Source of the DNA: Topomyia yanbarensis
Taxonomy: Eukaryota; Arthropoda; Insecta; Diptera; Culicidae
Assembly: GCF_030247195.1 (NCBI RefSeq)
Contig: NC_080672.1
Coordinates: forward strand, 366,536,271 to 366,600,270
Length of the DNA stretch: 64,000 bases
Direction: 5' to 3'
Each line of letters begins with the position of its first letter. Position 1 is the stretch's first letter. Shown piece by piece: positions 13,651 through 54,629 of this stretch. The position numbers and the translations under genes were made by a program. The notes beneath the pieces are model-generated. The model had not been told where the DNA came from. It ran no database searches and saw only the letters and a program-made list of their open reading frames with translations.

Positions 13651-13739
13651 TAAATCATTGCGACATGGCACGGCAACTGTTGTGGTACTCAAGTTCTTTT
13701 TTATAACGGTGACTGGAATGAAGGCAATCCAAGTGATGG

Positions 13740-30275: not shown

Positions 30276-30429
30276 ACACACATAGCGGAAGATGACGAAT
30301 GCTATAAGCGGAAGGGGACTAGGGGAATACGGAAAATAATGAGAGCTGACTAAATGGCCAAATGACTGCATGATTAGAACTCGTCGGAAAAAGGAAGGTG
30401 GACTCACAGACTCATACCGGTTCTCTCGA

Positions 30430-31553
30430 TCTGGGTAAATAGGAGGCATGGTGAAGTGACCTTCTATCTGACGCAGTTCCTGTCTGGGCATGGTTGTTTT
30501 AAACAGTACCTGCATCGGTTCGAACACGCTGTGTCACCTTTTTGTCCGGAGTGCATAAACGTCGAGGAAACGCCGGAGCATGTGATCCTCGTTTGTCCTA
30601 GATTTGACACAGCGTTTAATGTAGAGAATATTGTGGCAGAGATGTGTCGGGACGAGGGCACATAGAATTCCGTCGGCAGCGTAGTGACACTAATACTGTC
30701 GGAACTGCAGAGAAAGTGGCGAATAGAACAGCAAGCTGGCAACGCCAACTAGCAAGATGTGGGCGAGTGGTTCAAGTCTGTTACAAACCCTATGAGTGTG
30801 ATCGTGAAGGGACGCGAGTCAGGTCTTATGGCTTACAGATTCTAGCGTGGCGAAAGTCGTATGCGAGAAACGAGCACCAATTTAGCAATACCAACAAGTA
30901 GTTTCACGTCGGTTAAAAATTCTGCGAGGGTGGCTGTGATTCAAGTGGGATGCGATTCAAGTTTCGGCATCTCCAGTTCGGTTCACGTCTCGACGGGTTC
31001 CAATGTTGGCGACCGGTTACGTAGCAAGGGTTGGATAGCGTGCTGACTCAACGGACACAGGGGAGCCGACGGGCTCAGGGACATCTGGAAGCTAATGACA
31101 GTAACATTAATTCTGTTGGAGCTTTAGCGCAGCGGAGATACGAGCATTAAATTGGCAACAACAACAAGCAATTTCACGTCGGTTAAAAAAATCCTCCAAG
31201 GGTGGGGGTGAATGGATGCGAGTTACGTTTCGGTATCTCTATCAGTTCACGTCTCGACGGGTTCCGACGTTGGCGACGGCAACAGGTAACGTTGCAAGCT
31301 TTACGAGGGTAAAAAGAACAAAACTAAAAAAATGATAATAAATTGATAAAACACACACACAGTGAACAGGCGCAGTCGAGGAGTCGAGGGACTCTAAGAA
31401 AGAAGAGGTGAAAGAGCACAATCTCCTCCCGAAGTAATACTCAACGGTGGTCCCGGGAGGAAGAGGATACGGAGATACAGAAGGTTGAGGTTTAGTCGGT
31501 AGGCTTGCTGGAGCAAGAGCTGCAGTAAGAATCCGATGGTACCACGGCAAAAA
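30430..31553 (+). pseudogene. 5'-truncated R1-type retrotransposon (C-terminus and 3'UTR)
   Basis: At 30456-30665 a frame reads LTQFLSGHGCFKQYLHRFEH then CPECINVEETPEHVILVC, the R1-type ORF2 C-terminal CCHC finger seen in the tandem copies (CPDCPGVDETAEHILFVC). The continuation to about 30740 is in broken frames. The 3'UTR holds a duplicated segment (about 30885-31015 and 31160-31280, both with TTTCACGTCGGTTAAAAA). It ends in a CTCCCGAAGTAATACTCAACG block like the tandem copies' 3' end, then an A-rich tail (31545-31553) and ACAT/ACAC microsatellite. The left flank (30269-30283) is also ACAC-rich. Confidence 0.75.
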
Positions 31554-32824
31554 AAAGTAAAAAATTCCCCCTCGATAAAAAAAACATACATACACACACA
31601 GACATTTTCTGATCTCGACGAACTGAATCGAATGGTATACAAAATCGATTTTAATCGAGCACAAAAAATCAATTTTTACAGTGATTGCAAAACTTTTCTT
31701 TATATGAGAAAGGCAAAACATCCGAATTTTATTTTATCAGAAAGAACAGCTGCTACAGCTTCGTTTATCGCTTCTGGCAACGTTTCGCCTTTCTTTGACT
31801 TTTGTTTGTATGTCCTCATTTTCTGCTCGAATCAATTTGAAAACGAAAAATACAGTGCCAATTCGTTAGTTGCGACTCGATTAAAAGATGCTGCTATGTC
31901 AAAATCACATGTCAAATTGACTTTGACATTTAAAAAGACAATAGCCAATGATGTGAACAGATGCATTTTACACTACCACCATCCCCTTTGGAGAGTTTTT
32001 GACATCTGTCACCCAACCCAACTAACGAATCGGATTTTTTTAGTTGGGGTTTCAGTTTTTAGTTGGTCGTGACAATTAAAATGCGAAAAGTTTTGATAGC
32101 ATTTAATTCATAAAATATTAGACTCATCCTTTTTATAAACAATTTCCAACTTTTAATGATTATAATCCAAGATCCCGCAATAATAATCTGCTTTAGAAAT
32201 ATAATAATTCACATACACCTAAAGGATGCTATACAACCGATCCTGACGTACTACACGGGTAACATGGATCCAACGATGAACGTATGTTGAACGGTGATTT
32301 GGACGTCATCCTTCATATAGGACAATTTTGAGACCAACTGTTCTTAGGGTTCTTCTACCGATACAAACGAAAACGCCATTTTTTAACGTTTTCCAAAAAA
32401 TATCGCAATTTCAACGCAATCAAGTTGGTTTTTTTGTGGAACAGTGTTATAGAGGATAATTTTATAGCATGCTTCACGAATGAAATGATTTTGCTGCCTT
32501 CACAGTGAATTTTACCGTGTAGAGCCAAGCGTTTCAACGGTATTTTCCCCCGCTTGGCCCTTTTTGCCGAATGAGCGAGCAAAAGAAAAGCCGAAAAAGA
32601 CGCCATCAAAACAATAAACACCCTCTCAACCATTAGTGCCAAATATTCAGCTCTTATACGGTGAACAAGCGGCAGTGCCCGACAAGTGCGTCATCCAGAT
32701 GGAATTTTCAGTGAAAAAGTGGTGCTAATTTAGTAGAAACGACTGTCCAGTACTCAAAACGTTGCAAATAGTGTAATAGCATCGAAAAGCGATTCCTCAG
32801 TAGATTTGAGTATTACCGTCAGTG
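31554..32824. other. Region upstream of the CTL gene
   Basis: It begins with ACATACATACACACAC microsatellite and dispersed-repeat-like sequence, then AT-rich DNA. A TTCAGTGA at 32707-32714 resembles an arthropod initiator (TCAGT) and may lie near the CTL transcription start about 120 bp upstream of its ATG. This is inference only. Confidence 0.4.
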
Positions 32825-35800
32825 ATGGGGTGCTTCGAAAGTAAACCCAGCGATGATCAGCATCAGCCTACGGCTGTGCGAGGCTGTACCGATATATTTT
32901 GGCTAATTGTTTATGTTATATTCTGGGCTGCGTTGGTAAGTACAAAACAGAGTTATTACAGGTTTAAAATCAGATTAGAGTAATCAGTTGTTATGAGTTA
33001 GCTAGCAACTGTTTTGGATTGCAAAATTGACCACACCCGGTTGGTTGCTTATCGTAAGAAATATTAGAATACGAGAAAAACTAAAACAAAATGTAGTTAA
33101 TATGCGTTGGGCTTTTAAACGTAAGCGCTAGTTTTCGGTAGTTTTTTCCATTTCTTGATCTTTGCAGACGGATACTGGAAGTGATTGATTGAATACTGAT
33201 GGTACTTGTTGATATTTATAGAAACACCTGTTTGAACGTTTACTGTATACTTATGTACCTTGAAAAACTCCGGAATTTTCGCGTGGTTATTGAAAAGTGT
33301 CAATTGGTGGTCTAACGTCGGTAGTATTGTTGAAAACTATTTCCAGTAAACTGCCTGGTAAAGGTTGAAATACGGTCTGGACTCGTTCTTGAAATTTGTA
33401 TTTTATTTATCAGCAGAGCGTAATTGTAATTTATTAGTTCGCGATACCCTGTTGGTCACATTTGTGTGCCTTATGCCAGGTTAAAGAAAAATCAGTAAAA
33501 TTATCAGTTGCAGAAACTTTGTATCAAGTCGTTTCCGATCTGTTGAATGCGTTCCCAAGACAGCATTCTCATTAGATCTGTTATGCACCGTATCTTGGAC
33601 ATGACACGTCGTCTTGTTCAGAAATCTACAATAGAAATTTGATTCAACAACCTTGAATTGACCGATCCCGGTGCTGTTCCGTAGTGTGTACGGAACGTTT
33701 TTGAGGCGTGGTACATCACAATTACAAATTCTTGAGAAGTTCACATTGCATATCTAATTGATATTTTTTATTAGCAATTCCATTGCTATAGGAAATGACT
33801 TAATACATACCTTCATCCACAGTACCGTATATAACGATCTAATTTATAAACATTCCGTGACTCATATGTGACGCATTTTACACCCGACATAGAAACAATT
33901 AGTGTTGAAAATCCTAATCATACACGTTCGTTACATTCTAATTCTGTTTCCTCTTACCCCACAGCTGGTGATCGCAGTATTCTCCTTCGTATACGGCAAC
34001 CCGCTGCGTATCATCAATGGCTACGATTCCTTCGGCAACACATGTGGCGTTGAGAGCAACGAAAAATTTTCCCACTTCCCATTGTCTGGCATGAACACGC
34101 TGGACAAGCCGTACGTATTTTTCCTGGATCTAAAGGAACTCCGGCAGACGCTGAAGATCTGCGTCAAAGAATGCCCCAAAAAGGATATCGAAAATGCTAT
34201 GGAACTGTATCGGTACTATGAGGAAAGAGGAAGCAAGTACTGTCGGTACGATTTCAACATGAGTCTGCTAGCGACACAGGAGGCCACAGGACCGAAGTAC
34301 TTTGCGTTTGCGGGGCCGTGTCCGAAGTTTCCGGTTTACGAGGCAAAACCGGTGCTTCATCGTTGCATACCGACTGGGAAAAATGCTCCCCTGCATCATG
34401 TGAAGGATATGTATGCACTGATCAATTCCTGGGGAGCTGCACAGCAGGTGTTCAGCGATTTGTACAAGACTTGGCCAACGGTTGTGCTGATTTGTGGGCT
34501 CAGTTTAGTTTTTTCGATAATTCTAATCACCATGTTGCACTGGTTAACGGCTATTATATCGTGGGTTATTTGCATTTTTGTTGCTGTAGCGAGTATTGCG
34601 ATCACTGCGTTACTATGGTGGAGTTACTACAAGACGAAACACAATATGGATGTTGATCCGAAGCTGTCGTATCTGGAGGAGTTGGTGCGAAATGAAACCA
34701 CTATCTATGTACTAGCAATAGCGGCTACATGTATAATGATTATACTGCTGGTTATCATTTACTATCTTCGGGAAAAATTAAGTGGTTTAGCGGCATTGTT
34801 TGAAGAGGCTGGCAAGTGCATGATTGAACTCCCCGGACTAGCAGGACCCCCGGTTCTGGCTTTTATTTCGTTGGCTCTATTTCTTACATTTTGGGTAGTG
34901 GTAATTGTTTGTTTGGCTACTGCCAATTACCCCAATGTAAGACCGCTACTGCCATTCACTCAATTGAAGGAGAATCCGAACAAGACTGAAGCTGACGTAA
35001 AGCCGGACATGCCAGCGAACAACAACACGTACAAATGTAGGATAAGTTTAATTGTTTGCTCTTGATCATTAGTTAATAAATATCGACATTTCCAGCATTC
35101 GACCTAGTTGAATACCCTGAGGCTGACTACCTTCGTCACATGCTCTGGATCTACATTATTGGACTGATTTGGACAACGGAATTTATTTTCGCCTGCCAGC
35201 AGCTAGCTATTGCAGGAGCCGTAGCGTACTGGTACTTCCGTAAGCCGACCGACGCCCCGGTTCTGCAAGCTATCGGCAAACTAATCAAGTATCATCTGGG
35301 CTCGGTTGCAAAAGGATCGTTCATCATTACCATCTTCAAGATTCCCCGTTTGATACTGACCTATTTATACACGAAGTAGTTCATTTCAAACAATTGCTAA
35401 AGTATTTGCCATAATTCATGTTTATTTTAGATTGAAACGACATCAGCAAGAGGGATCGGAATGTGCAAGCTGCTGTCTTAAGTGTTGCATCTGTAGTTTC
35501 TGGCTACTGGAGAAATTCATCCGCTATCTGAATCATAATGCCTACACGGTCATTGCAATCGAAAGTGTCAATTTCTGTCCAGCTGCCAAAATTGTAAGCG
35601 AACGCATTTCGTCATTCGTAAATTATCTATTGACCCATTTCTAATTATTCTCTTATCTCGAAGGCCTGGAATGCACTGGTGACAAATGCTCTGCAGGTAG
35701 CAACCATCAACGGTATCGGCGATTTCGTGCTGTTTTTAGGAAAATTGGCCGTAGCAGCATTGTGCGGGGTGATCAGTATTCTGCTGCTACGCGACAACCC

Positions 35801-36169: not shown

Positions 36170-37497
36170 AGTTTCCTCAGCGCGAGGCAAGCGCAACGTG
36201 CAAGCACAAAAGACGTCACATTTATTTTTTGGTAATACGAATAGGCGATCGGTATATGAGTCTCTTCGCCTATATTTGATATAAGGCAGTTTATAAAGCG
36301 TTAAGCGGCTTCACAGAAACGAAGTTTCTACGTTTTGCAACAGTAAGCTTTTCTTGCTTAAACAGAAAAAAATGTATTTTTTCTGATACAAAAATAACAA
36401 GAGAGAAGTGTTGACTGTTGGTAGCTTACCAGCATCTATTTACAAGATGGCATTTCATCTATTTAAGCTGATTCCATCCAGAATTTTGTAAAATGTTTAA
36501 GTATTCAAACCATCTTAAATCTCACGCACAAAGACGATGTTTAAACTATTTGAAGAAAGAAAACAATGCTTAAATGTTGTATTTAATATTTATTGTATGC
36601 ATTTTTAAATCACACAAATATCTCCTCTATCAATTGGGCCAAATTAAATATTAACGTTCGCTCCACCAAGAACATTAACACATTGAAACTCACGTTCAAA
36701 ATACCATAATTAAATGTAGCTACTCATAATAATCGGTTGATTCATTGTTGAAAAAGTTAGTTTTGCCAGATTTTATTCCCATATTGATGTTTATAACGCC
36801 AGTTCAGATTATAAAAAAACAGTTTAGAGATGAGTACAGATTTGCTATATTATATATACTAATTAGTAACATGATATACACCAACAATCTGATGTAATAA
36901 TTGGACTATAAATAAAATCGCTAATTGTGAGCTCAAACAATTGCCATTGCGTATTTTTATGTTTATTTGTTGTATCATCACCAACAGACCCCTTGGCCCG
37001 GGTCTGGGTCATTTGGAATAAAGCTGTGGCGGCAACATTCCTGGCCACCCTGTCTGAGATCTGCCCGCCAACTACTGAAAACCCAGAGAGAAGAGAGAGC
37101 GAGAAGACAGAAAAAGTAATACCTAATATAAAAGTGATCAATCACCCTAGGGGTTCGTAGACCTTAAGGACCATTCATAAATTACGTAACGCTTTTAGTG
37201 GAAGGAGGCGCTATAACAAAATGTGATATGTTGTGACATATGGGGAAGGGGGAGTAAGGTAGAACGTTGTTTTTGCAGAAGAAATTTTTTAACATCTTTG
37301 TTAAGTAATAGGGGAGGGAGGGTTACAGAAATTTGTGACAATTTGTTACATGAAGAGAGGGGGAGCCCCCAGCAACACCGTTTGTTGACTAGCACTTTCT
37401 GCAACATAATTCGTTGAAAAGAAGTTATTGTTATTTGTTATTTATCAGTGTGCAATCGGGCTGTCTCAACAACCTATTTCTGCAACCTATGTGCATT
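36170..37497. other. 3' flank of the CTL gene
   Basis: AT-rich sequence that probably includes the CTL 3'UTR. At 37170-37195 a CCATTCATAAATTACGTAA block resembles a dispersed insect repeat, also seen in part at 60220. No other gene is supported. Confidence 0.4.
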
Positions 37498-37702
37498 AAA
37501 GTTGGACAGAGAAAGGGTCAAATTCGCAAACGAAAAAAGCAGTTTTTTTCCACACCGTATGTCAGATCTTCATAAAAATCAATCAGCAGTACTGTAACAA
37601 CATTCTACATACGCTGATTGATTTTTATGAAGATCTGACATACGGTGTGGAAAAAACTGCTTTTTTCGTTTGCGAATATTGCGCATTCTCTGTCCAACCT
37701 TA
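37498..37702. mobile_element. Foldback MITE, arms about 90 bp
   Basis: The left arm (37498-37587) and right arm (37612-37702) are near-perfect inverted copies (shared words TTGGACAGAGAA, CGCAAACGAAAAAAGCAG, ACACCGTATGTCAGATCTTC) around a loop of about 24 bp. No ORF. Confidence 0.8.
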
Positions 37703-38226
37703 ACTGTACACCTACCGTCTCTCCGTTGCACTTGACAGTGTGTGCAGTGCTTTATGGTCACACCTACGACCGCGCACCCGGCTTCCTATGAGCGTTTTAG
37801 CGGCTCAGAGGCTGTCCTTCCATGTTGCTCAGGGATACATTGGTCCTATACACATCCATGCATACATACGGGCTTACATAACTCCGCTAGCGAATGGCGG
37901 ATCTCAATAGTAGCATGTCTGTAATAATATACGTACATGGAACTATTGAGAACCAGAGCTACAGGTCCAAAGCCCTGGTAAAGGAGGATGGTTGTTATGA
38001 TCTGGGCCGCGGTCACCACGTAAAGCAAGATTGGTCATAACCCCAATTCCAAGGCGTGAAGCGACCCTGCCGAGGGATGAGTGATCGAGGGGGTGAAAAA
38101 GATGCTCGATCGTTAACGGAACCTGTGGGGTACCTGGGCAACCCCCACAGTAAGCGTCCCTTACCACGTTAATGCGGAGCTCTGGCGTGGCGGACATTTA
38201 TTCTCGCGCTACTTGTGGGAACTGAA

Positions 38227-39689
38227 ATGGAGAACAAAAACAAAAACTATAATAAACAAACGGAGGTGCCAAACCCCTTTGCTAGAGGTGGTTTGGCGAG
38301 GTCTCCCCCCCGTGGGGAGAGTAGTGGAGCGACGAGTGCTGCATCTGATAACACCAGTGACCCCCCAGTAGTGGTAGGAAGTAGCCCTACCAACGCACTG
38401 GATGGGCCACTATCCGCGATGCGCAAAGTGGTGGAGCAGTTCGATTCAATAATAGAGTTCACTAGCGCAAAGCAAAACATAAGCAAGTAGTTGAAGCAGA
38501 GCCTCCTGGTGCTCCGGAAAACTGTTCGTGTCGCAAGACAGGAACAGCAGGCTTATGCCAAGAGGGTGGAATGTCGGGAGAAGTCCGACAGAGAAACCCA
38601 GACAGTGGCCTCCAAGAGGGAGGGAAGAGAGAAGGTCGATACAGGCACTCAGACAGTGGCCTTCACCTTCTATGGAGAAGCCATGTCGCTCGGAGCGGCG
38701 GCCGAGTTCCCCTCAAAGGGAAAAGGCAAGGGCAATCGTAAGACGGCGCCGAACGCGAAGCGCCCTAGGAAGTCGCCAGGCGAGGGTGCAAAAACCGACA
38801 CCACACGGCGTGCAACCGTTAAGGCCAGACGTCGTTTGGTCGAGGTGAGCGAGAGTGACCTCGCTGGGCAGAGCGTTGGTACCAGCAACCCGGCGCGATC
38901 GGGGCAGGGGGGCGTTAACCCCTGGACGCTGGTCACCAGGAAGAAGCCGGCACCGACACCGGAGGTACCGCGGCCCGCGAAGAAGGCCAAGGACAGAGGC
39001 GAGGCCTTGTGGTTAAAAACCGATAAGGACAAATACGCCGACGTCCTAAAGTCGATGAAGGCGGCCGAAAGCCTTTCGGCCCTTGGGCAAAATGTGCTTA
39101 GCGTGAGACGCATCAACACGGGAGAAATGCTTCTGGTGCTGCAGCGAGGCGCACAATCTAGTGCGGTGTACAAGGCCTTGGCCCAAGAGGTCCTTGGTGA
39201 GGGCGCCCAATGACTCTCCAGTACAAGCATCTGGACGAGTTCACGACCGCAGAAGATGTCGTCGCAGCCGTTAAGGAGCAATGCGACGTCACAATCGAGC
39301 GGGCCTCTGTGCGATTTAGAGAGGGACCCTCTGGCACCCAAGTAGCCTACCTCAGGCTACTGTAGGCGGATGCCAAAAAGGTAACCGAGAAAGGTAAGCT
39401 GAAGATCGGCTGGTCGGTATGTCCAATTAGCATACCCCAGCCGCCTTCAGTGGATAGGTGCTATCGGTGCCTTGAGTCCGGCCACAAAGCCTACGAGTAC
39501 AAGGACATAGACAGGAGCAAACTATGTCGTCGCTGCGGCGAGGAGGGGCATAAGGAGCGGGATTGCACTAAGGCGCATAAGTGCCTTATCTGCACCGCTA
39601 AGAAGCAAGCTCATAAACATGCTATGGGCGGACCTTCGTGTCCCTTCGGTGAGGTAAATAAGAAGAAGCCGCGAACGTCACACAGCTAA
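38227..39689 (+). pseudogene. R1-type ORF1 (Gag-like), copy 1
   Basis: The start is set at the ATG opening MENKNKNYNKQTEV. In-frame TAG codons lie at 38488-38490 and 39363-39365. A frame change at the ATGA near 39210 joins a Lys/Arg-rich region and ALAQEVLGEGAQ to the DEFTTAEDVVAAVKEQC segment. The C-terminus has zinc knuckles CYRCLESGHKAYEY (last Cys of the CCHC replaced by Tyr), CRRCGEEGHKERDC and CLIC, as in R1 ORF1. It would bind element RNA if intact. Confidence 0.85.
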
Positions 39690-42551
39690 ATCTTAACCAT
39701 TGTGCAGCAGCCCAACAGCTGCTGTAGCAGTCGGTCTCGGAGTCGAGGACAGATGTCGCCCTCCTATCAGACCCGTACAACATCCCTGCCGGCAACGGCA
39801 TTTGGGTGTCGGACGGGTCTGGAATGGTGGCAATCTGTACAACGGGAAGGTGCCCGGTTCAAGAGGTAATACACCCCTCCGCCGAGGGTGTGGCGATTGC
39901 CAAGATCAATGGTGTGTTCTATTGCAGCTGCTACGCCCCACCAAGGTGGCCAATAGAACAGTTCTACCAGATGATCGACAGGCTCTCGTCGGACCTCGTG
40001 GGCCGGAAACCGGTAGTAATAGCGGGAGACTTTAACGCTTGGGCAGTGGAGTGGGGCAGCCGCTGTACAAATAGCAGGGGTCAAGCGCTAATGGAGGCGC
40101 TTGCGAAACTCGATACTGTGCTAGCTAATAATGGCTCCGCTAGTACATTCCGTAGAAACGGGATGGAGGCGTGGTTTGACGTAACATTTGCCAGCCCGAG
40201 TCTGGCTCCAGGCATGGAATGGAGGGTAGACGAAGGCTACTTCCATAGCGATCATTTAGCAATCCGCTTTAGGATCAACTATGGTGTGCAGCATCCGAGG
40301 GCGGGAGATCCCTGTCAGGTACGCGGGTGGAAGTCCAATCACTTCGACAGCGAAGCTTTCACCGCGGCCCTGGCACTGGAGGCCAACACCGACAGTCTAA
40401 GCGGGGATGCGCTGGTAGCTGTTCTATCACGCGCGTGCGACGCCACTATGCCGAGAAAAACACTGCCAAGAAACGGTAGATGCCCGGTATACTGGTGGAG
40501 TGCCGAGATTGCAGCTCTACGGTCAGCCTGTCTCAGAGCTAGACGTAAGATGCAAAGAGCTCGCACCGAGGATGCAAGAGAGAACCGCCGTGAAGTGTTT
40601 CGAGCTGCGAAATTGACCCTTAACAAGGCTATTAAAAGCAGCAAGAGAGCGTGTTTCGACAACCTGTGTGAGAGTGCCAACGCGAATCCGTGGGGTGACG
40701 CCTACAGGATAGTGATGGCCAAGACCACCCCCAGAACGGTCTCCGGCCCGGTTGGCAACGATTATCGAAGTACTCTTCCCGTCTCGAGCCACAAGCCCCT
40801 GGCCACCTGCACTACGAGACAGTGTGGGCACGGCCGAAATGGTGGCTCCAGTGACGAATGAAGAACTACTCGCAGTGGCTAAATCCCTAGCAATGAACAA
40901 AGCTCCAGGGCCGGATGGAGTTCCAAACAACGCTCTCAAGGCAGCGATCATAGCGAACCCGAACATTTTCAGGCTTGTTATGCAGAGATGCCTTGACGAG
41001 TGCCGTTTCCCCGATAGATGGAAAAGGCAGAAATTGGTGCTGCTGCCGAAGCCCGGGAAGCCGCCAGGCGACCCATCGGCGTACAGACCAATCTGCCTGA
41101 TCGACACGATTGGCAAACTTCTTGAGAGGATCATCCTCAACAGGCTAACCCCGTACGCGGAAGGTACGGACTGCCTGTCAAGCAACCAGTTTGGCTTTCG
41201 GAAGGGTAAGTCCACAGTGGACGCTCTCAACTCAGTGATAAATACTGCCGAGATAGCGATCCAACGGAAAAGGCGAGGCATTCGATACTGTGCGTTAGTG
41301 ACACTTAACGTGAAGAACGCATTCAACAGCGCAAGCTGGGATGCCATCGCGCTCTCGTTACATCGGCTTAGCCTACCGGTGGGTCTGTACCGGATCCTGG
41401 AAAGTTACTTCCAGAACCGCGTACTGCTATACGAGGCCGATGCCGGTAAGAAAAGGGTTCCGATTACCGCCGGAGTCCCGCAGGGCTCGATCCTAGGCCC
41501 GGTGCTATGGAACCTCATGTATGACGGGGTTCTGAGACTGAAGTTCCCTCCTGGGGTCAAGATCGTCGGCTTTGCCGACGATGTAACCTTGGAGGTCTAC
41601 GGGGAGTCAATTCCTGAGGTAGAACTAACCGCAGAACACGCGATTAGCACGGTGGAGGAATGGATGAGCGCGAGAGGCCTGGAGCTCGCTCATCATAAGA
41701 CGGAGGTAGTTATCGTCAACAACCGCAAGTCGGTACAACATGCAGTTATCCATGTGGGAGAATTCGCGATCACTTCACAGCGAAGTCTGAAGTCTCTCGG
41801 AGTCATTATAGACGACAAGCTGACCTTCGGCAGCCATGTCGACTATACGTGCAAGAGAGCGTCGACTGCTGTTGCGGCACTATCGAGAATGATGTCCAAC
41901 AGCTCAAAGGTGTGCGCCAGTAGACGTAGGTTACTGGCAGGCGTTGCCGTATCTATCCTCAGGTACGGCGGCCCGTCATGGTCAAGAGCACTGAGGGTAA
42001 CCAGTTACCTACAGAAACTGGAGAGCACCTACCGCGTGATGTGCCTCAGAGTGATATCTGCCTACCGCACGGTATCACACGATGCATCCTGCGTGATAGC
42101 GAGCATGATGCCAGTCGGGCTGGTCATTCGGGAAGATGAGGAGTGCTTTGAGCTACGTGGAAATAGGGGAGCCCGCGAGCGCACCAGGGTGACCTCGGTC
42201 GCCAGATGGCAGCGTGAGTGGGACAACTCCTCGAAAGGTAGGTGGACCCACCGGCTGATACCTAGCATATCGAGCTGGTTGGGAAGACCCCATGGGGAAG
42301 TTCACTTCCACCTGACACAATTCCTGTCAGGCCATGGCTGTTTCCGTCAGTACCTCCACAGGTTCGGGCACGCGGAGGTCCCAGTCTGCCCGGACTGCCC
42401 AGGTGTAGATGAAACTGCCGAACACATACTGTTCGTATGTCATCGGTTCGACGTCGAAAGAAGAGCAATGCTTGACGTCTGTGGCTGGGACACAACCCCG
42501 GATACCCTTATTCAGCGGATGTGGAGAGAGACAATAGAGTGGCACGATTGA
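39683..42551 (+). pseudogene. R1-type ORF2 (endonuclease-RT), copy 1
   Basis: The endonuclease starts at about QLNLNHCAAAQ (39683). An in-frame TAG is at 39725-39727. Motifs: LLSDPYN (an Asp where the catalytic Glu is expected), VVIAGDFNAW, FHSDHLAI. The frame changes near 40750 into the RT: NKAPGPDGVPNNAL, SAYRPICLIDT, NQFGFRKGKSTVDAL, then motif A reads LVTLNVKNAFNSASW with Asn in place of the catalytic Asp (codon 41307-41309). GVPQGSILGPVLWN and GFADDVTLE are intact. The C-terminal finger CPDCPGVDETAEHILFVC supports the R1 clade; no RNase H is present. Confidence 0.9.
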
Positions 42552-42559
42552 GAGTGAAT

Positions 42560-42770
42560 CAGGTGATAGGGTGAGCACCCAAGTCAGCCTCACATGGATG
42601 GGTAGGGCGAGCACAAAAGTAAGCCTAGCAAGGAATGAGTAAGGTGAGCACACAAGTCAGCCTCGCATGGAACGTAAAAGGTGAGCACAAAAGTCAGCCT
42701 CATGTGGGAGTGTTTGAGAGTGAATCAAAGTGTGATTGAGAGAGCACCCAAGTAAGCCTCATACAGGATG
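42560..42770 (+). repeat. 3'UTR degenerate tandem repeats, copy 1
   Basis: Units of about 37-40 bp share GTGAGCACAAAAGTCAGCCT and CATGG. Copy 1 has one more unit than copy 2 (the extra 37 bp near 42660-42698), which accounts for most of the length difference. Confidence 0.75.
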
Positions 42771-43382
42771 TATGATCGCGTGAGTGAGAGTGAATGAGTA
42801 CACTTAGTACAGCCATCCCCCCAGAAGTAATACCGAGAGGTAGTTCCTGGGAGGAATGATGGCGGAGCCCAATGGAGTTTAGTCGGTATTAATGGCTGGT
42901 CACCATTCGAGTCCGACACGCCCCCAGTGCACCCCGTGTGGTAGATTGGACCCTACCGTTAGCACGTGTACTGGGCTAGGACATAAAGGTCTTCTCCATT
43001 GTAAAAAAAAAAAAAAAAAAATACGGGCTTACATAACTCCACTAGCGAATGACGGATCTCAATAGTAGCATGTCTGTAATAATATACGTACATGGAACTA
43101 TTGAGAACCAGAGCTACAGGTCCAAAGCCCTGGTAAAGGAGGATGGTTGTTATGATCTGGGCCGCGGTCACCACGTAAAGCAAGATTGGTCATAACCCCA
43201 ATTCCAAGGCGTGAAGCGACCCGTACCGAGGGATGAGTGATCGAGGGGGTGAAAAAGATGCTCGATCGTTAACGGAACCTGTGGGGTACCTTGGCAACCC
43301 CCACAGTAAGCGTCCCTTACCACGTTAATGCGGAGCTCTGGCGTGGCGGACATTTATTCTCGCGGTACTCGTGGGAACTGAA

Positions 43383-44846
43383 ATGGAGAACAAAAACAAA
43401 AACTATAATAAACAAACGGAGGTGCCAAACCCCTTTGCTAGAGGTGGTTTGGCGAGGTCTCCCCCCGTGGGGAGAGTAGTGGAGCGACGAGTGCTGCATC
43501 TGATAGCACCAGTGACCCTCCAGTAGTGGTAGGAAGTAGCCCTACCAACGCACTGGACGGGCCACTATCCGCGATACGCAAAGTGGTGGAGCAGCTCGAT
43601 TCAATAATCGAGTTCACTAGCGCATAGCAAAACATAAGCATAAGTAGTTGAAGCAGAGCCTCCTGGTGCTCCGGAAAACTGTTCGTGTCGCAAGACAGGA
43701 ACAGCAGGCTTATGCCAAGAGGGTGGAATGTCGGGAGAAGTCCGACAGAGAAACCCAGACAGTGGCCTCCAAGAGGGAGGGAAGAGATAAGGTCGATACA
43801 GGCACTCAGACAGTGGCCTTCACCTTCTATGGAGAAGCCATGTCGCTCGGAGCGGCGGCCGAGTTCCCCTCGAAGGGAAAAGGCAAGGGCAATCGTAAGA
43901 CGGCGCCGAACGCGAAGCGCCCTAGGAAGTCGCCAGGCGAGGGTGCAAAAACCGACACCACACGGCGTGCAACCGTTAAGGCCAGACGTCGTTTGGTCGA
44001 GGTGAGCGAGAGTGACCTCGCTGGGCAGAGCGTTGGTACCAGCAACCCGGCGCGATCGGGGCAGGGGGGCGTTAACCCCTGGACGCTGGTCACCAGGAAG
44101 AAGCCGGCACCGACACCGGAGGTACCGCGGCCCGCGAAGAAGGCCAAGGACAGAGGCGAGGCCTTGTGGTTAAAAACCGATAAGGACAAATACGCCGACG
44201 TCCTAAAGTCGATGAAGGCGGCCGAAAGCCTTTCGGCCCTTGGGCAAAATGTGCTTAGCGTGAGACGCATCAACACGGGAGAAATGCTTCTGGTGCTGCA
44301 GCGAGGCGCACAATCTAGTGCGGTGTACAAGGCCTTGGCCCAAGAGGTCCTTGGTGAGGGCGCCCAATGACTCTCCAGTACAAGCATCTGGACGAGTTCA
44401 CGACCGCAGAAGATGTCGTCGCAGCCGTTAAGGAGCAATGCGACGTCACAATCGAGCGGGCCTCTGTGCGATTTAGAGAGGGACCCTCTGGCACCCAAGT
44501 AGCCTACCTCAGGCTACTGTAGGCGGATGCCAAAAAGGTAACCGAGAAAGGTAAGCTGAAGATCGGCTGGTCGGTATGTCCAATTAGCATACCCCAGCCG
44601 CCTTCAGTGGATAGGTGCTATCGGTGCCTTGAGTCCGGCCACAAAGCCTACGAGTACAAGGACATAGACAGGAGCAAACTATGTCGTCGCTGCGGCGAGG
44701 AGGGGCATAAGGAGCGGGATTGCACTAAGGCGCATAAGTGCCTTATCTGCACCGCTAAGAAGCAAGCTCATAAACATGCTATGGGCGGACCTTCGTGTCC
44801 CTTCGGTGAGGTAAATAAGAAGAAGCCGCGAACGTCACACAGCTAA
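43383..44846 (+). pseudogene. R1-type ORF1, copy 2
   Basis: As copy 1 with a few substitutions. A TAG at about 43624-43626 replaces the Lys codon in the SAKQN segment, and a 2-bp insertion near 43636 (cataagcataagtag) adds a frameshift. The TAG at 44520-44522 is shared with copy 1. Confidence 0.85.
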
Positions 44847-47708
44847 ATCTTAACCATTGTGCAGCAGCCCAACAGCTGCTGTAGCAGTCGGTCTCGGAGT
44901 CGAGGACAGATGTCGCCCTCCTATCAGACCCGTACAACATCCCTGCCGGCAACGGCATTTGGGTGTCGGACGGGTCTGGAATGGTGGCAATCTGTACAAC
45001 GGGAAGGTTCCCGGTTCAAGAGGTAATACACCCCTCCGCCGAGGGTGTGGCGATTGCCAAGATCAATGGTGTGTTCTATTGCAGCTGCTACGCCCCACCA
45101 AGGTGGCCAATAGAACAGTTCTACCAGATGATCGACAGGCTCTCGTCGGACCTCGTGGGCCGGAAACCGGTAGTAATAGCGGGAGACTTTAACGCTTGGG
45201 CAGTGGAGTGGGGCAGCCGCTGTACAAATAGCAGGGGTCAAGCGCTAATGGAGGCGCTTGCGAAACTCGATACTGTGCTAGCTAATAATGGCTCCGCTAG
45301 TACATTCCGTAGAAACGGGATGGAGGCGTGGTTTGACGTAACATTTGCCAGCCCGAGTCTGGCTCCAGGCATGGAATGGAGGGTAGACGAAGGCTACTTC
45401 CATAGCGATCATTTAGCAATCCGCTTTAGGATCAACTATGGTGTGCAGCATCCGAGGGCGGGAGATCCCTGTCAGGTACGCGGGTGGAAGTCCAATCACT
45501 TCGACAGCGAAGCTTTCACCGCGGCCCTGGCACTGGAGGCCAACACCGACAGTCTAAGCGGGGATGCGCTGGTAGCTGTTCTATCACGCGCGTGCGACGC
45601 CACTATGCCGAGAAAAACACTGCCAAGAAACGGTAGATGCCCGGTATACTGGTGGAGTGCCGAGATTGCAGCTCTACGGTCAGCCTGTCTCAGAGCTAGA
45701 CGTAAGATGCAAAGAGCTCGCACCGAGGATGCAAGAGAGAACCGCCGTGAAGTGTTTCGAGCTGCGAAATTGACCCTTAACAAGGCTATTAAAAGCAGCA
45801 AGAGAGCGTGTTTCGACAACCTGTGTGAGAGTGCCAACGCGAATCCGTGGGGTGACGCCTACAGGATAGTGATGGCCAAGACCACCCCCAGAACGGTCTC
45901 CGGCCCGGTTGGCAACGATTATCGAAGTACTCTTCCCGTCTCGAGCCACAAGCCCCTGGCCACCTGCACTACGAGACAGTGTGGGCACGGCCGAAATGGT
46001 GGCTCCAGTGACGAATGAAGAACTACTCGCAGTGGCTAAATCCCTAGCAATGAACAAAGCTCCAGGGCCGGATGGAGTTCCAAACAACGCTCTCAAGGCA
46101 GCGATCATAGCGAACCCGAACATTTTCAGGCTTGTTATGCAGAGATGCCTTGACGAGTGCCGTTTCCCCGATAGATGGAAAAGGCAGAAATTGGTGCTGC
46201 TGCCGAAGCCCGGGAAGCCGCCAGGCGACCCATCGGCGTACAGACCAATCTGCCTGATCGACACGATTGGCAAACTTCTTGAGAGGATCATCCTCAACAG
46301 GCTAACCCCGTACGCGGAAGGTACGGACTGCCTGTCAAGCAACCAGTTTGGCTTTCGGAAGGGTAAGTCCACAGTGGACGCTCTCAACTCAGTGATAAAT
46401 ACTGCCGAGATAGCGATCCAACGGAAAAGGCGAGGCATTCGATACTGTGCGTTAGTGACACTTAACGTGAAGAACGCATTCAACAGCGCAAGCTGGGATG
46501 CCATCGCGCTCTCGTTACATCGGCTTAGCCTACCGGTGGGTCTGTACCGGATCCTGGAAAGTTACTTCCAGAACCGCGTACTGCTATACGAGGCCGATGC
46601 CGGTAAGAAAAGGGTTCCGATTACCGCCGGAGTCCCGCAGGGCTCGATCCTAGGCCCGGTGCTATGGAACCTCATGTATGACGGGGTTCTGAGACTGAAG
46701 TTCCCTCCTGGGGTCAAGATCGTCGGCTTTGCCGACGATGTAACCTTGGAGGTCTACGGGGAGTCAATTCCTGAGGTAGAACTAACCGCAGAACACGCGA
46801 TTAGCACGGTGGAGGAATGGATGAGCGCGAGAGGCCTGGAGCTCGCTCATCATAAGACGGAGGTAGTTATCGTCAACAACCGCAAGTCGGTACAACATGC
46901 AGTTATCCATGTGGGAGAATTCGCGATCACTTCACAGCGAAGTCTGAAGTCTCTCGGAGTCATTATAGACGACAAGCTGACCTTCGGCAGCCATGTCGAC
47001 TATACGTGCAAGAGAGCGTCGACTGCTGTTGCGGCACTATCGAGAATGATGTCCAACAGCTCAAAGGTGTGCGCCAGTAGACGTAGGTTACTGGCAGGCG
47101 TTGCCGTATCTATCCTCAGGTACGGCGGCCCGTCATGGTCAAGAGCACTGAGGGTAACCAGTTACCTACAGAAACTGGAGAGCACCTACCGCGTGATGTG
47201 CCTCAGAGTGATATCTGCCTACCGCACGGTATCACACGATGCATCCTGCGTGATAGCGAGCATGATGCCAGTCGGGCTGGTCATTCGGGAAGATGAGGAG
47301 TGCTTTGAGCTACGTGGAAATAGGGGAGCCCGCGAGCGCACCAGGGTGACCTCGGTCGCCAGATGGCAGCGTGAGTGGGACAACTCCTCGAAAGGTAGGT
47401 GGACCCACCGGCTGATACCTAGCATATCGAGCTGGTTGGGAAGACCCCATGGGGAAGTTCACTTCCACCTGACACAATTCCTGTCAGGCCATGGCTGTTT
47501 CCGTCAGTACCTCCACAGGTTCGGGCACGCGGAGGTCCCAGTCTGCCCGGACTGCCCAGGTGTAGATGAAACTGCCGAACACATACTGTTCGTATGTCAT
47601 CGGTTCGACGTCGAAAGAAGAGCAATGCTTGACGTCTGTGGCTGGGACACAACCCCGGATACCCTTATTCAGCGGATGTGGAGAGAGACAATAGAGTGGC
47701 ACGATTGA
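44840..47708 (+). pseudogene. R1-type ORF2, copy 2
   Basis: It shares every lesion of copy 1: TAG at 44882-44884, Asp for Glu in LLSDPYN, the endonuclease/RT frame change near 45907, motif A Asn (46464-46466), and the same 3' deletion. Predicted RT protein is unchanged from copy 1. Confidence 0.88.
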
Positions 47709-48505
47709 GAGTGAATCAGGTGATAGGGTGAGCACCCAAGTCAGCCTCACATGGATGGGTAGGGCGAGCACAAAAGTAAGCCTAGCAAGGAATGAGTAAG
47801 GTGAGCACACAAGTCAGCCTCATGTGGGAGTGTTTGAGAGTGAATCAAAGTGTGATTGAGAGAGCACCCAAGTAAGCCTCATACAGGATGTATGATCGCG
47901 TGAGTGAGAGTGAATGAGTACACTTAGTACAGCCATCCCCCCAGAAGTAATACCGAGAGGTAGTTCCTGGGAGGAATGATGGCGGAGCCCAATGGAGTTT
48001 AGTCGGTATTAATGGCTGGTCACCATTCGAGTCCGACACGCCCCCAGTGCACCCCGTGTGGTAGATTGGACCCTACCGTTAGCACGTGTACTGGGCTAGG
48101 ACATAAAGGTCTTCTCCATTGTAAAAAAAAAAAAAAAAAAAAAATACGGGCTTACATAACTCCACTAGCGAATGACGGATCTCAATAGTAGCATGTCTGT
48201 AATAATATACGTACATGGAACTATTGAGAACCAGAGCTACAGGTCCAAAGCCCTGGTAAAGGAGGATGGTTGTTATGATCTGGGCCGCGGTCACCACGTA
48301 AAGCAAGATTGGTCATAACCCCAATTCCAAGGCGTGAAGCGACCCGTACCGAGGGATGAGTGATCGAGGGGGTGAAAAAGATGCTCGATCGTTAACGGAA
48401 CCTGTGGGGTACCTTGGCAACCCCCACAGTAAGCGTCCCTTACCACGTTAATGCGGAGCTCTGGCGTGGCGGACATTTATTCTCGCGGTACTCGTGGGAA
48501 CTGAA

Positions 48506-49982
48506 ATGGAGAACAAAAACAAAAACTATAATAAACAAACGGAGGTGCCAAACCCCTTTGCTAGAGGTGGTTTGGCGAGGTCTCCCCCCGTGGGGAGAGT
48601 AGTGGAGCGACGAGTGCTGCATCTGATAGCACCAGTGACCCTCCAGTAGTGGTAGGAAGTAGCCCTACCAACGCACTGGACGGGCCACTATCCGCGATAC
48701 GCAAAGTGGTGGAGCAGCTCGATTCAATAATCGAGTTCACTAGCGCATAGCAAAACATAAGCATAAGTAGTTGAAGCAGAGCCTCCTGGTGCTCCGGAAA
48801 ACTGTTCGTGTCGCAAGACAGGAACAGCAGGCTTATGCCAAGAGGGTGGAATGTCGGGAGAAGTCCGACAGAGAAACCCAGACAGTGGCCTCCAAGAGGG
48901 AGGGAAGAGATAAGGTCGATACAGGCACTCAGACAGTGGCCTTCACCTTCTATGGAGAAGCCATGTCGCTCGGAGCGGCGGCCGAGTTCCCCTCGAAGGG
49001 AAAAGGCAAGGGCAAGGGCAATCGTAAGACGGCGCCGAACGCGAAGCGCCCTAGGAAGTCGCCAGGCGAGGGTGCAAAAACCGACACCACACGGCGTGCA
49101 ACCGTTAAGGCCAGACGCCGTTTGGTCGAGGTGAGCGAGGGCGAGAGTGACCTCGCTGGGCAGAGCGTTGGTACCAGCAACCCGGCGCGACCGGGGCAGG
49201 GGGGGCGTTAACCCCTGGACGCTGGTCACCAGGAAGAAGCCGGCACCGACACCGGAGGTACCGCGGCCCGCGAAGAAGGCCAAGGACAGAGGCGAGGCCT
49301 TGTGGTTAAAAACCGACAAGGACAAATACACCGACGTCCTAAAGTCGATGAAGGCGGCCGAAAGCCTTTCGGCCCTTGGGCAAGATGTGCGCAGCGTGAG
49401 ACGCATCAACACGGGAGAAATGCTTCTGGTGCTGAAGCGAGGCGCACAATCTAGTGCGGTGTACAAGGCCTTGGCCCAAGAGGTCCTTGGTGAAGGCGCC
49501 CAATGACTCTCCAGTGCAAGCATCTGGACGAGTTCACGACCGCAGAAGATGTCGTCGCAGCCGTTAAGGAGCAATGCGATGGTACAATCGAGCGGGCCTC
49601 TGTGCGATTTAGAGAGGGACCCTCTGGCACCCAAGTAGCCTACCTCAGGCTACTGAAGGCGGATGCCAAAAAGGTAACCGAGAAAGGTAAGCAGAAGATC
49701 GGCTGGTCGGTATGCCCAATTAGCATACCCCAGCCGCCTTCAGTGGATAGGTGCTATCGGTGCCTTGAGTCCGGCCACAAAGCCTACGAGTGCAAGGGCA
49801 TAGACAGGAGCAAACTATGTCGTCGCTGCGGCGAGGAGGGGCATAAGGAGCGGGGTTGCACTAAGGCGCATAAGTGCCTTATCTGCACCGCTAAGAAGTA
49901 AGCCCATAAACATGCTATGGGCGGACCTTCGTGTCCCTTCGGTGAGGTAAATAAGAAGAAGCCGCGAACGTCACACAGCTAA
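48506..49982 (+). pseudogene. R1-type ORF1, copy 3
   Basis: It shares the 5' TAG (about 48747-48749) and nearby 2-bp insertion with copy 2. It has small in-frame length changes (an extra GK pair near 49014 and an extra GE near 49140). An extra G in the G-run near 49198-49206 shifts the frame. The ATGA frame change is at 49503-49506. Unlike copies 1 and 2 it keeps LLKADAKK (no TAG) and the first CCHC knuckle CYRCLESGHKAYEC, but gains TAA at 49899-49901. Confidence 0.85.
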
Positions 49983-52924
49983 ATCTTAACCATTGTGCAG
50001 CAGCCCAACAGCTGCTGTGGCAGTCGGTCTCGGAGTCGAGGACAGGTGTCGCCCTCCTATCAGACCTGTACAACATCCCTGCCGGCAACGGCAATTGGGT
50101 GTCGGACGGGTCTGGAATGGTGGCAATCTGTACAACGGGACGGTTCTCAGTTCAAGAGGTAATACACTCCTCCGTCGAGGGTGTTGCGATTGCCAAGATC
50201 AATGGTGTGTTCTATTGCAGCTGCTACGCTCCACCAAGGTGGCCAATAGAACAGTTCAACCAGATGATCGAAAGGCTCTCGTCAGACCTAGTGGGCCGGA
50301 AACCGGTAGTCATAGCGGGAGACTTTAACGCTTGGGCAGTGGAGTGGGGCAGCCGCTGTACAAATAGCAGGGGTCAAGCGCTAATGGAGGCGCTTGCGAA
50401 ACTCGATACTGTGCTAGCTAATAATGACTCCGCTAGTACATTCCGTAGAAACGGGATGGAGGCGTGGTTTGACGTAACATTTGCCAGCCCGAGTCTGGCT
50501 CCAGGCATGGAATGGAGGGTAGACGAAGGCTACTTCCATAGCGATCATTTAGCAATCCGCTTTAGGAACAACTATGGTGTGCAGCATCCGAGGGCGGGAG
50601 ATCTCTGTCAGGTACGCGGGTGGAAGTCCAATCACTTCGACAGCGAAGCTTTCACCGCGGCCCTGGCACTGGAGGCCAACACCGACAGCCTAAGCGGGGA
50701 TGCGCTGGTAGCTGTTCCATCACGCGCGTGCGACGCCACTATGCCGAGAAAAACACTGCCAAGAAACGGCAGATGCCCGGTATACTGGTGGAGTGCCGAG
50801 ATTGCAGCTCTACGGTCAGCCTGCCTCAGAGCTAGACGTAGGATGCAAAGAGCTCGCACCGAGGATGCAAGAGAGAACCGCCGTGAACTGTTTCGAGCTG
50901 CGAAATTGACCCTTAACAAGGCTATTAAAAGCAGCAAGAGAGCGTGTTTCGACAACCTGTGTGAGAGTGCCAACGCGAATCCGTGGGGTGACGCCTACAG
51001 GATAGTGATGGCCAAGACCACCCCCAGAACGGTCTCCGGCCCGGTTGGCAACGATTATCGAAGTACTCTTCCCGTCTCGAGCCACAAGCCCCTGGCCACC
51101 TGCACTACGAGACAGTGTGGGCACGGCCGAAATGGTGGCTCCAGTGACGAATGAAGAACTACTCGCAGTGGCTAAATCCCTAGCAATGAACAAAGCTCCA
51201 TGGCCGGATGGAGTTCCAAACAACGCTCTCAAGGCAGCGATCATAGCGAACCCGAACATGTTCAGGCTAGCTATGCAGAGATGCCTTGACGAGTGCCGCT
51301 TACCCGATAGATGGAAAAGGCAGAAATTTGTGATGTTGCCGAAGCTCGGGAAGCCGCCAGGCGACCCATCGGCGTACAGACCAATCTGCCTGATCGACAC
51401 GACTGGCAAACTTCTTGAGAGGATCATCCTCAACAGGCTAACCCCGTACGCGGAAGGTACGGACGGCCTGTCAAGCAACCAGTTTGGCTTTCGGAAGGGT
51501 AAGTCCACAGTGGACGCTCTCAACTCAGTGATAAATGCTGCCGAGATAGCGATCCAACGGAAAAGGCGAGGCATTCGATACTGTGCGTTAGTGACACTTG
51601 ACGTGAAGAACGCATTCAACAGCGCAAGCTGGGATGCCATCGCGCTCTCGTTACACCGGCTTAGCCTACCGGTGGGTCTGTACCGGATCCTGGAAAGTTA
51701 CTTCCAGAACCGCGTACTGCTATACGAGGCCGATGCCGGTCAGAAAAGGGTTCCGATTACCGCCAGAGTCCCGCAGGGCACGATCCTAGGCCCGGTGCTA
51801 TGGATCCTCATGTATGACGGGGTTCTGAGACTGAAGTTCCCTCCGGGGGTCAAGATCGTCGGCTTTGCCGACGACGTAACCTTGGAGGTCTACGGGGAGT
51901 CAATCCCTGAGGTAGAACTAATCGCAGAACACGCGATCAACACGGTGGAGGAATGGATGAGCGCGAGAGGCCTGGAGCTCGCTCATCATAAGACGGAGGT
52001 AGTTATCGTCAACAACCGCAAGTCGGCACAACATGCAGTTATCCATGTGGGAGAAGTGCGATCACTTCACAGCGAAGTCTGAAGTCTCTCGGAGTCATTA
52101 TAGACGACAAGCTGACCTTCGGCAGCCATGTCGACTATACATGCAAGAGAGCGTCGACTGCTGTTGCGGCTCTATCGAGGATGATGTCCAACAGCTCAAA
52201 GGTGTGCGCCAGTAGACGTAGGTTACTGGCAGGCGTTGCCGTATCTATCCTCAGGTACGGCGGCCCGTCATGGTCAAGAGCACTGAGGGTAACCAGTTAC
52301 CTACAGAAACTGGAGAGCACCTACCGCGTGATGTGCCTCAGAGTGATATCTGCCTACCGCACGGTATCACATGATGCATCCTGCGTGATAGCGAGCATGA
52401 TGCCAGTCGGGCTGGTCATTCGGGAAGATGAGGAGTGCTTCGAGCTACGTGGAAATAGAGGAGCCCGCGAGCGCACCAGGGTGACCTCGGTCGCCAGATG
52501 GCATCGTGAGTGGGACAACTTCTCCAAAGGTAGGTGGACCCACCGGCTGATACCTAGCATATCAAGCTGGGTGGGAAGACCCCACGGGGAAGTTCACTTC
52601 CACCTGACACAATTCCTGCCAGGCCATGGCTGTTTCCGACAGTACCTCCACAGGTTCGGGCACGCGGAGGTCCCAGCCTGCCCGGACTGCCCAGGTGTAG
52701 ACGAAACTGCCGAACACATACTGTTCGTATGTCCTCGGTTCGACGTCGAAAGAAGAGCAATGCTTGACGTCTGTGGCTGGGATACAACCCCTGATACCCT
52801 TATTCAGCGGATGTGTCAATCGGTGGAGAAGTGGAACGCAGTCTCGGCTGCTACCATCCAGATTGCCTGTAGGCTACAGGTAATCTGGCGAACCGAGCAA
52901 CAGACGACGGGCACGGCTAACTAG
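49976..52924 (+). pseudogene. R1-type ORF2, copy 3
   Basis: It keeps Trp where copies 1 and 2 have TAG (QLLWQSV) and the RT motif A Asp (LVTLDVKNAF, codon 51600-51602). Shared with the others: Asp for Glu in LLSDLYN (50063) and the frame change near 51043. Private changes: APWPDG for APGPDG, RVPQGT for GVPQGS, and a frameshift at about 52053-52083 (GEVRSLHSEV). The C-terminus runs on to RTEQQTTGTAN before the stop at 52924. Confidence 0.88.
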
Positions 52925-53612
52925 TGATTGGTTAGCTGGAGCGAAAAAGGCCAAGCGCAAAAAAGGGAGTGAATGGTCTGTTCATGCTGAGGCAGGTTTG
53001 GCGCAGCGACTGGCAACCGCGTAAGGGGTAAACCCAGCCACCCCGAAGCAAGACAGAAAGTGAGTGTATAGGCGTATAAGTGGACTGCCTCATGCCAAGA
53101 CGGGAGGGTCGTAGCGTAGTATGTTGGGACTTAGTTATCGATGCCTCATGGCGTGGCAGAGGAGTGAAAGGGTGAGCATCCAAGTCAGTCTCACACGGCA
53201 TGTTAAGGGTGAGCACAAAAGTCAGCCTCACATGGTATGTCAGAAGTGGGGCCTAAGAAAAATGTCCCACATGGGATGCCAGGGGGAGTGACAGAGGTAC
53301 AATAGAGTGGCACGATCGAGAGTGAACCAGGTGATAGGGTGAGCACCCAAGTTAGCCTCACATGGTATGGGTGGGGCGAGCACAAAAGTAAACCTAGCAA
53401 GGAATGAGTAAGGTGAGCACACAAGTCAGCCTCATGTGGGAGTGTTTGAGAGTGAATCAAGGTGCGATAGAGAGAGCACCCAAGTAAGCCTCATATAGGA
53501 CGTATGAACGCGTGAGTGAGAGTGAATGAGTACATTAAGTACAGCCATCCTCCAGAAGTCTGGGCTAGGACGTAAAGGTCTTCTCCATCGTAAAAAAAAT
53601 ACGGGCTTACAT

Positions 53613-54629
<1,017 letters not shown>

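What the first reader, a model, noticed from the sequence alone, without database searches (positions are those of the whole stretch)
37867..53612. Three tandem R1-type retrotransposons separated by one 13-bp target sequence
The same 13-mer (tacgggcttacat) precedes, separates and follows three head-to-tail elements, each ending in poly-A directly before it. Non-LTR elements rarely form clean head-to-tail arrays outside rDNA-type targets. Either the site was hit repeatedly with exact reuse, or one insertion was amplified.
Basis: seen in the sequence. Interest (0 to 1): 0.75.

Follow-up and report, generated by a model that had tools for sequence, protein, structure and literature searches.

The report
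Tandem mosquito retrotransposons with crossover hybrid
A mosquito chromosome carries three dead jumping genes in a row, and the middle one is a hybrid of its two neighbours, which suggests that the row grew by a chromosome mispairing rather than by three separate jumps.

Summary
The 13-mer TACGGGCTTACAT occurs exactly at 37867, 43022, 48145 and 53600 and brackets three head-to-tail units (E1 5142 bp, E2 5110 bp, E3 5442 bp), each ending in poly-A. The units are decayed R1-type LINEs with Waldo-named relatives, in what is probably a culicine mosquito, at an ACAT microsatellite. E2 is a single-breakpoint hybrid. Up to column 838 it is E3 (0 of 838 sites differ; E1 and E2 differ at 15 of 835). 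From column 848 it is E1 (1 of 4260 differ; E3 and E2 differ at 111 of 4105). The polarity is that of a duplicating unequal crossover between E1 and E3. So an E1-E3 pair became a trio by recombination, recently compared with the 2.6% E1-E3 divergence. How the pair arose is unresolved: three shared disabling lesions favour DNA-level duplication across the target-site repeats; codon and decay asymmetries (p about 0.02) favour two insertions. TSD-spaced R1 arrays are known in rDNA; this is a new member outside it. The whole-genome search did not complete (18 attempts), and no reads were available.

The parts
37867..37879 (+). 13-mer copy 1 (5' target-site duplication; 14 bp if the preceding A is counted)
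37880..43021 (+). E1: dead Waldo-like R1-type element, poly-A 19, one extra 37-bp 3'UTR unit, 476 bp absent at the ORF2 C-terminus
43022..43034 (+). 13-mer copy 2
43035..48144 (+). E2: hybrid element; the first about 840 bp identical to E3, the rest identical to E1 apart from 1 substitution, the 37-bp unit and poly-A length (22)
43872..43882 (+). crossover breakpoint interval in E2 (up to 43989 if the 6-bp indel is discounted); matching places are 38715-38725 in E1 and 48995-49005 in E3
48145..48157 (+). 13-mer copy 3
48158..53599 (+). E3: dead Waldo-like element, poly-A 8, 142 bp absent in the 3'UTR, private frame-breaking indels, retains the ORF2 C-terminus
53600..53612 (+). 13-mer copy 4 (3' target-site duplication)
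53613..53630 (+). right flank, ACAT microsatellite (the left flank 37856-37866 ends GCATACA)
39728..40861 (+). E1 ORF2 part 1 (stop to stop): AP-like endonuclease (PF14529, PF03372)
40716..42551 (+). E1 ORF2 part 2 (stop to stop): reverse transcriptase (PF00078), in another frame than part 1
38488..38490 (+). in-frame TAG in ORF1 of E1, present at the same place in E2 and E3
39205..39215 (+). approximate place of the ORF1 frame change, the same in all three units
40727..40752 (+). interval of the EN/RT linker frame change, the same in all three units

Best explanation
A Waldo-like R1-type LINE inserted by target-primed reverse transcription into an ACAT microsatellite and left a 13-14 bp target-site duplication (inferred from anatomy). 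The locus became a head-to-tail pair E1-E3 sharing one copy of the 13-mer; the route is not settled. The pair then decayed as dead DNA. Recently a misaligned pairing of E1 on one chromatid or homologue with E3 on the other crossed over about 840 bp into the element (inferred from the single-breakpoint mosaic, which is shown). The product is E1 - (E3 5' / E1 3') - E3, exactly what is seen. The 13-mer is preserved at every junction because it lies inside the repeating unit, not because it was cut again for the extra copy. For the pair I slightly favour DNA-level duplication of an already dead element by exchange between its two flanking 13-mers; re-insertion into a 13-mer is almost as likely.
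For: Mosaic: of 140 substitution or indel events that set one outer unit apart, 18 of 18 up to column 838 group E2 with E3, and 120 of 122 from column 848 on group E2 with E1 (one of those 120 is a poly-A length difference; one more event, also poly-A, is private to E2). The chance of such an order is about 9e-21 if events are independent. The two exceptions are isolated. One is a substitution at column 1988 with E1-type markers in E2 4 bp before and 2 bp after it; there 49 of 50 relatives have Y or F and none has E1's C, so it is private to E1. The other is one 37-bp tandem unit extra in E1. The polarity fits the duplicating product. Post-crossover divergence is 1 of 5098 sites against 127 of 4949 for E1-E3 (0.8% of it, upper limit about 4%). 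The same ORF1 stop, ORF1 frame change and EN/RT frame change in all three units, against unbroken relatives P0241 and P0001, mean that the common ancestor of E1 and E3 was probably already dead. Arrays of units joined by short repeats, attributed to unequal sister-chromatid exchange, are described in PMC8831618 (outline and passages). Amplification of a degenerate R2 by unequal recombination rather than reverse transcription is the authors' preferred view in PMC4370867 (abstract).
Against: For the crossover: it rests on one assembly without reads; a mis-resolved repeat graph over an E1-E3 pair would give the same mosaic, though E2's three small differences from E1 argue against a simple re-walk. 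The breakpoint is not in the longest identical E1-E3 stretch (313 bp, columns 2731-3044). Recombinants between close R1 subfamilies can be rare (1 of 115 informative plasmid ends in D. grimshawi; PMC2718515, passage). For the DNA-level origin of the pair: 38 of 95 changed codons are synonymous, against 0.29-0.30 expected under neutrality (p 0.015-0.025), and at 241 invariant ORF2 sites the losses are 11 in E3 only against 2 in E1 only (p 0.022; Fisher test against variable sites p 0.040). Both suggest that E1 and E3 did not simply decay side by side from one dead parent. They also carry different large indels and tail lengths.
Confidence: 0.8

Rival explanations
1. The founding pair arose by two retrotranspositions into the same target: a second Waldo-like RNA was inserted at a 13-mer of the first element, as proposed for Drosophila R1 arrays in 28S genes. 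Only the extra unit came from crossover.
For: PMC2718515 section 13 (read): tandem R1s separated by the 14-bp TSD, inferred to be insertions into the 5' TSD. Excess of synonymous change between E1 and E3 (38 of 95; p 0.015-0.025) and 11:2 decay asymmetry. Upstream E1 has the longer tail (19 against 8), as expected if the upstream copy is younger.
Against: E1 and E3 share three disabling lesions, so two separate insertions need a dead source mobilised in trans, or gene conversion. Two of the three lesions lie in long identical stretches (163 and 313 bp), compatible with conversion, but 27% of the sequence lies in stretches that long, so this is not surprising; the third lesion lies between differences only 22 bp apart. 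Neighbouring ACAT phases offer other nick sites (inference), so exact re-use is less forced than in 28S.
Confidence: 0.42
2. The founding pair arose by DNA-level duplication of one dead element through exchange between its flanking 13-mers (first step of the best explanation).
For: Three shared lesions; total polarised amino-acid change not significantly different (28 E3, 23 E1, p 0.58); 13-14 bp flanking repeats fit the short-repeat amplification pattern of PMC8831618 (passages).
Against: Synonymous excess and 11:2 asymmetry at invariant sites, each about p 0.02 and not independent of each other.
Confidence: 0.48
3. Three insertions followed by gene conversion of about 840 bp between E2 and E3, or duplication of E1 followed by such conversion, rather than one crossover.
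For: Also yields a hybrid E2.
Against: Needs at least two events where one suffices, and the observed polarity is the one the duplicating crossover requires while conversion allows either.
Confidence: 0.1
4. Assembly artefact: a real E1-E3 pair (or two alleles) walked twice through a shared stretch.
For: From column 838 to 961 E1 and E3 differ only by a 6-bp indel after the breakpoint; no reads were available.
Against: E2 differs from E1 after the breakpoint by a substitution, a 37-bp unit and 3 A's, and the window has no N.
Confidence: 0.1

Closest known systems
Tandem R1 arrays in Drosophila 28S rDNA (PMC2718515; section 13 read, other passages)
   Same: R1 elements in tandem, separated by the target-site duplication (14 bp there, 13-14 bp here)
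   Different: Here the site is an ACAT microsatellite 2.8 kb from a choline-transporter-like exon, not rDNA, and one unit is a recombinant of its neighbours
Waldo elements (names 'waldo-6 aae' and 'waldo-3 aae' from the protein search; ACAY-repeat targeting is recalled, no source read)
   Same: ORF2 kinship (51-56% to the named proteins), poly-A end, insertion at ACAT/ACAC repeats here and in a relic of the window
   Different: E1-E3 are dead and arrayed; family criteria at DNA level were not tested, and the tree does not make them part of a named-Waldo group
Short-repeat-mediated tandem amplification, SRS-unit-SRS (PMC8831618, outline and passages)
   Same: unit flanked and separated by a short direct repeat
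   Different: here the repeat is a transposon's own target-site duplication
Degenerate R2 amplified by unequal recombination (PMC4370867, abstract)
   Same: dead LINE multiplying as DNA
   Different: there amplification of the inserted 28S gene is proposed, here only the element and its 13-mer repeat

Membership tests
R1 clade LINE | ORF2 with AP-like endonuclease followed by reverse transcriptase | tested here: met
   PF14529/PF03372 and PF00078, in two frames because of a frame change; most of the listed relatives carry both in one protein; only solved-structure match of the EN piece is TRAS1 (1wdu, E 1.4e-12)
R1 clade LINE | ORF1 with CCHC zinc knuckles | tested here: met
   By alignment: 66% over 186 residues to the knuckle end of P0241, which bears PF00098. 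The one frame of E1 ORF1 scanned gave no Pfam family; the knuckles lie in another frame
R1 clade LINE | about 14-bp target-site duplication | tested here: met
   13 or 14 bp; the R1 value is from PMC2718515 (passages)
R1 clade LINE | RT phylogeny with reference R1, TRAS and SART elements | not tested
   No reference set was held; the EN match to TRAS1 is the only direct link, and that TRAS1 is of the R1 clade is recalled
Waldo family | groups with named Waldo proteins in an RT tree | tested here: inconclusive
   (20 rows): E1 groups with unnamed P0001, P0002, P0006, P0010, P0025 (100/99); the three named Waldo rows fall elsewhere, and the only outgroup is very long-branched
Waldo family | insertion into ACAY repeats (recalled) | tested here: met
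   2 of 2 three-prime ends that I located in the window abut ACAY repeats; not tested genome-wide
Tandem R1-type array | copies head to tail separated by one TSD | tested here: met
Tandem R1-type array | located in 28S rDNA | tested here: not met
   flanks are an ACAT repeat, and a choline-transporter-like exon lies 2.8 kb upstream; no rRNA search was run

The most novel reading that the evidence does not exclude
Target-site duplications of microsatellite-targeting LINEs act as seeds for arrays outside rDNA. The short repeat lets one dead insertion become a pair without any retrotransposition, after which kilobase-long homology lets unequal crossover expand it, a two-step route from a lone transposon to a satellite-like array that is caught here at the two-to-three step.
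Probability: 0.3. Interest if true: 0.5.

Novelty: new member of a known kind. Interest (0 to 1): 0.35.

Why it matters
The array preserves the breakpoint of the event that enlarged it, so the usual ambiguity between repeated insertion and recombination can be decided for one of the copies. Because the trio is so recent compared with the pair, two-unit alleles may still segregate, which makes array growth testable in population samples. It also shows that identical spacers in a LINE array do not by themselves mean repeated precise integration.

Tried and rejected
Three independent insertions: rejected for E2, because a fresh insertion would not match two neighbours on either side of one breakpoint. 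Short gene-conversion patch at column 1988: rejected, since E1-type markers lie 4 bp before and 2 bp after it. A 13-mer that belongs to the element itself: not excluded genome-wide, but the joined flanks form an ACAT repeat with a single 13-mer. A scan of viral contigs for DNA relatives matched nothing, and that tool says that records of the window's own genome may be left out. Literature on Waldo's target: only 20, 14, 15 and 9 papers were listed; of these I opened PMC2718515, PMC4640811 and PMC2868851 as passages, and none of the passages shown states Waldo's target. Tandem LINE arrays were sought (listings).

Tests that came out ambiguous: codon positions of E1-E3 differences 22/30/46; longest identical E1-E3 stretch 313 bp, p 0.03; RT tree with named Waldo proteins. 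Polarised changes by ORF are uneven: ORF2 24 E3-derived and 16 E1-derived (50 relatives), ORF1 4 and 7 (3 relatives only); several rest on one or two relatives.
Full report
Observation. The exact 13-mer TACGGGCTTACAT occurs four times in the window, at 37867, 43022, 48145 and 53600. Between the four lie three direct repeats of 5142, 5110 and 5442 bp, here E1, E2 and E3. Each ends in poly-A (19, 22 and 8 A) directly before the next 13-mer. The left flank reads GCATACA into the first 13-mer, and the right flank continues as TCATACATACATAC. Joined, the flanks make one imperfect ACAT repeat with a single 13-mer. Because the first 13-mer is itself preceded by A, the duplication may be 14 bp.

What the units are. 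E1 carries an AP-like endonuclease (PF14529, E 4.3e-19) and a reverse transcriptase (PF00078, E 1e-32) in two overlapping frames. The only solved-structure match of the endonuclease piece is TRAS1 ORF2p; that TRAS1 is an R1-clade element is recalled. The protein search scored 7990 candidates, found 1032 matches and listed 120; the best is 70% identical (unnamed source), and three of those listed bear the names 'waldo-6 aae' (two) or 'waldo-3 aae' (one), in Anopheles, at 51-56%. A 20-row tree places E1 with unnamed relatives and does not by itself make it a named Waldo. The host is a culicine mosquito by inference: a choline-transporter-like exon at 33893-35065 is 87% identical to the Culex quinquefasciatus protein and 73-74% to two Anopheles ones.

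The units are dead. Against ORF1 relative P0241 and ORF2 relative P0001, both unbroken, all three units share an in-frame stop in ORF1, a frame change in ORF1 and a frame change between EN and RT. At the ORF1 frame change the relative P0241 also has about seven residues that the units lack. E1 and E2 lack 476 bp at the ORF2 end; E3 has private one-base indels and lacks 142 bp of the 3'UTR.

The middle unit is a hybrid. I classified every substitution and indel by which unit stands apart. Up to column 838, 15 substitutions and 3 indels set E1 apart and none sets E3 apart. From column 848 on, 111 substitutions and 9 indels set E3 apart, while one substitution and one 37-bp repeat unit set E1 apart. 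One further indel, a poly-A length difference, is private to E2. In sites: E2 against E3 is 0 of 838 before the breakpoint and 111 of 4105 after; E1 against E2 is 15 of 835 before and 1 of 4260 after. The breakpoint lies within 43872-43882 of the window, or up to 43989 if the 6-bp indel at column 848 is discounted.

Mechanism. When a pair A-B misaligns so that A on one strand faces B on the other, the longer crossover product is A - (B 5' / A 3') - B. That is the order seen. The reciprocal product would be a single A 5' / B 3' unit. One event therefore accounts for E2, its junctions and the additional copy of the 13-mer. It is recent: 1 difference in 5098 sites since the event, against 127 in 4949 between E1 and E3. 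The one substitution after the breakpoint is private to E1: 36 of 50 relatives have Y, 13 have F and none has E1's C, and E1-type markers lie 4 bp before and 2 bp after it in E2. Shown: the mosaic and its polarity. Inferred: that it was a crossover (not conversion plus duplication), and that the assembly is right.

Where the pair came from. This I could not settle. For DNA-level duplication of one dead element: the three shared lesions, and similar amino-acid decay overall (28 E3-derived, 23 E1-derived, 1 unpolarised, 44 positions with stop or gap set aside; p 0.58). For two insertions: 38 of 95 changed codons are synonymous where 0.28-0.30 is expected neutrally (p 0.015-0.025), and among 241 ORF2 sites invariant in at least 49 of 50 relatives, 11 are lost in E3 only, 2 in E1 only, 7 in both and 221 in neither (p 0.022, or 0.040 by Fisher test against the variable sites). 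Gene conversion could reconcile these. Two of the three shared lesions do lie in long identical stretches (163 and 313 bp), but 27% of the sequence lies in stretches that long, and the third lesion lies between differences 22 bp apart. I put DNA-level duplication at 0.48 and two insertions at 0.42.

Comparison with what is known. Tandem R1 elements separated by the 14-bp TSD are reported in seven Drosophila species, many and perhaps all of them in the rDNA loci, and attributed to insertion into the 5' TSD; tandem-like R1s of D. melanogaster are attributed to amplification of one event (PMC2718515, section 13). [quoted passage not shown] simulans, and found 1 recombinant among 115 informative plasmid ends between two R1 subfamilies of D. 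grimshawi (passages). Amplification of units between short repeats by unequal sister-chromatid exchange is described in PMC8831618 (outline and passages). A degenerate R2 that multiplies by unequal recombination is the preferred reading in PMC4370867 (abstract). Utopia is occasionally in tandem in U2 genes (PMC4640811, passage). The present locus looks like the first of these and may have grown like the second. It is not a 28S array. A decayed Waldo-like relic in the window also ends in poly-A directly on an ACAY run (31584-31599), which supports ACAY targeting in this genome, with two sites only.

Limits. The window's own genome could not be searched, so there is no tree of copies, no survey of junctions and no count of other arrays. 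No reads were available. The statistics at p about 0.02 are few and not independent.

Noticed in passing
13647-14089, 20573-21544, 30282-30749, 3' end at 31577-31599: Pieces of one or more decayed Waldo-like elements on the + strand; about 0.8 kb after the last piece a poly-A runs directly into ACATACATACACACAC, so again an ACAY target. That the pieces belong to one element is a guess.
   Followed up: partly
about 15000-20306, minus strand: A different non-LTR element with endonuclease and reverse transcriptase, broken into several frames.
   Followed up: no
37496-37703: A palindrome (arms 53 nt at 89% and 44 nt at 100%) about 160 bp upstream of the array, MITE-like.
   Followed up: no
61144-61405 and 62694-63024: TTATGCCAAA-type minisatellite in two arrays of opposite orientation, parts of a larger inverted repeat (225-nt arms 97% complementary).
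   Followed up: no
11145-11399 and 15648-16018; 7866-8038 and 12633-12802: TTTACGCGG and TTCCGGGAAATG minisatellites, each in two separate arrays, the latter on opposite strands.
   Followed up: no
42570-42701, 47724-47822, 53168-53240: 37-bp repeats in the element's 3'UTR vary between units (one extra unit in E1 against E2 and E3 at one place), a possible slippage marker for array age.
   Followed up: partly
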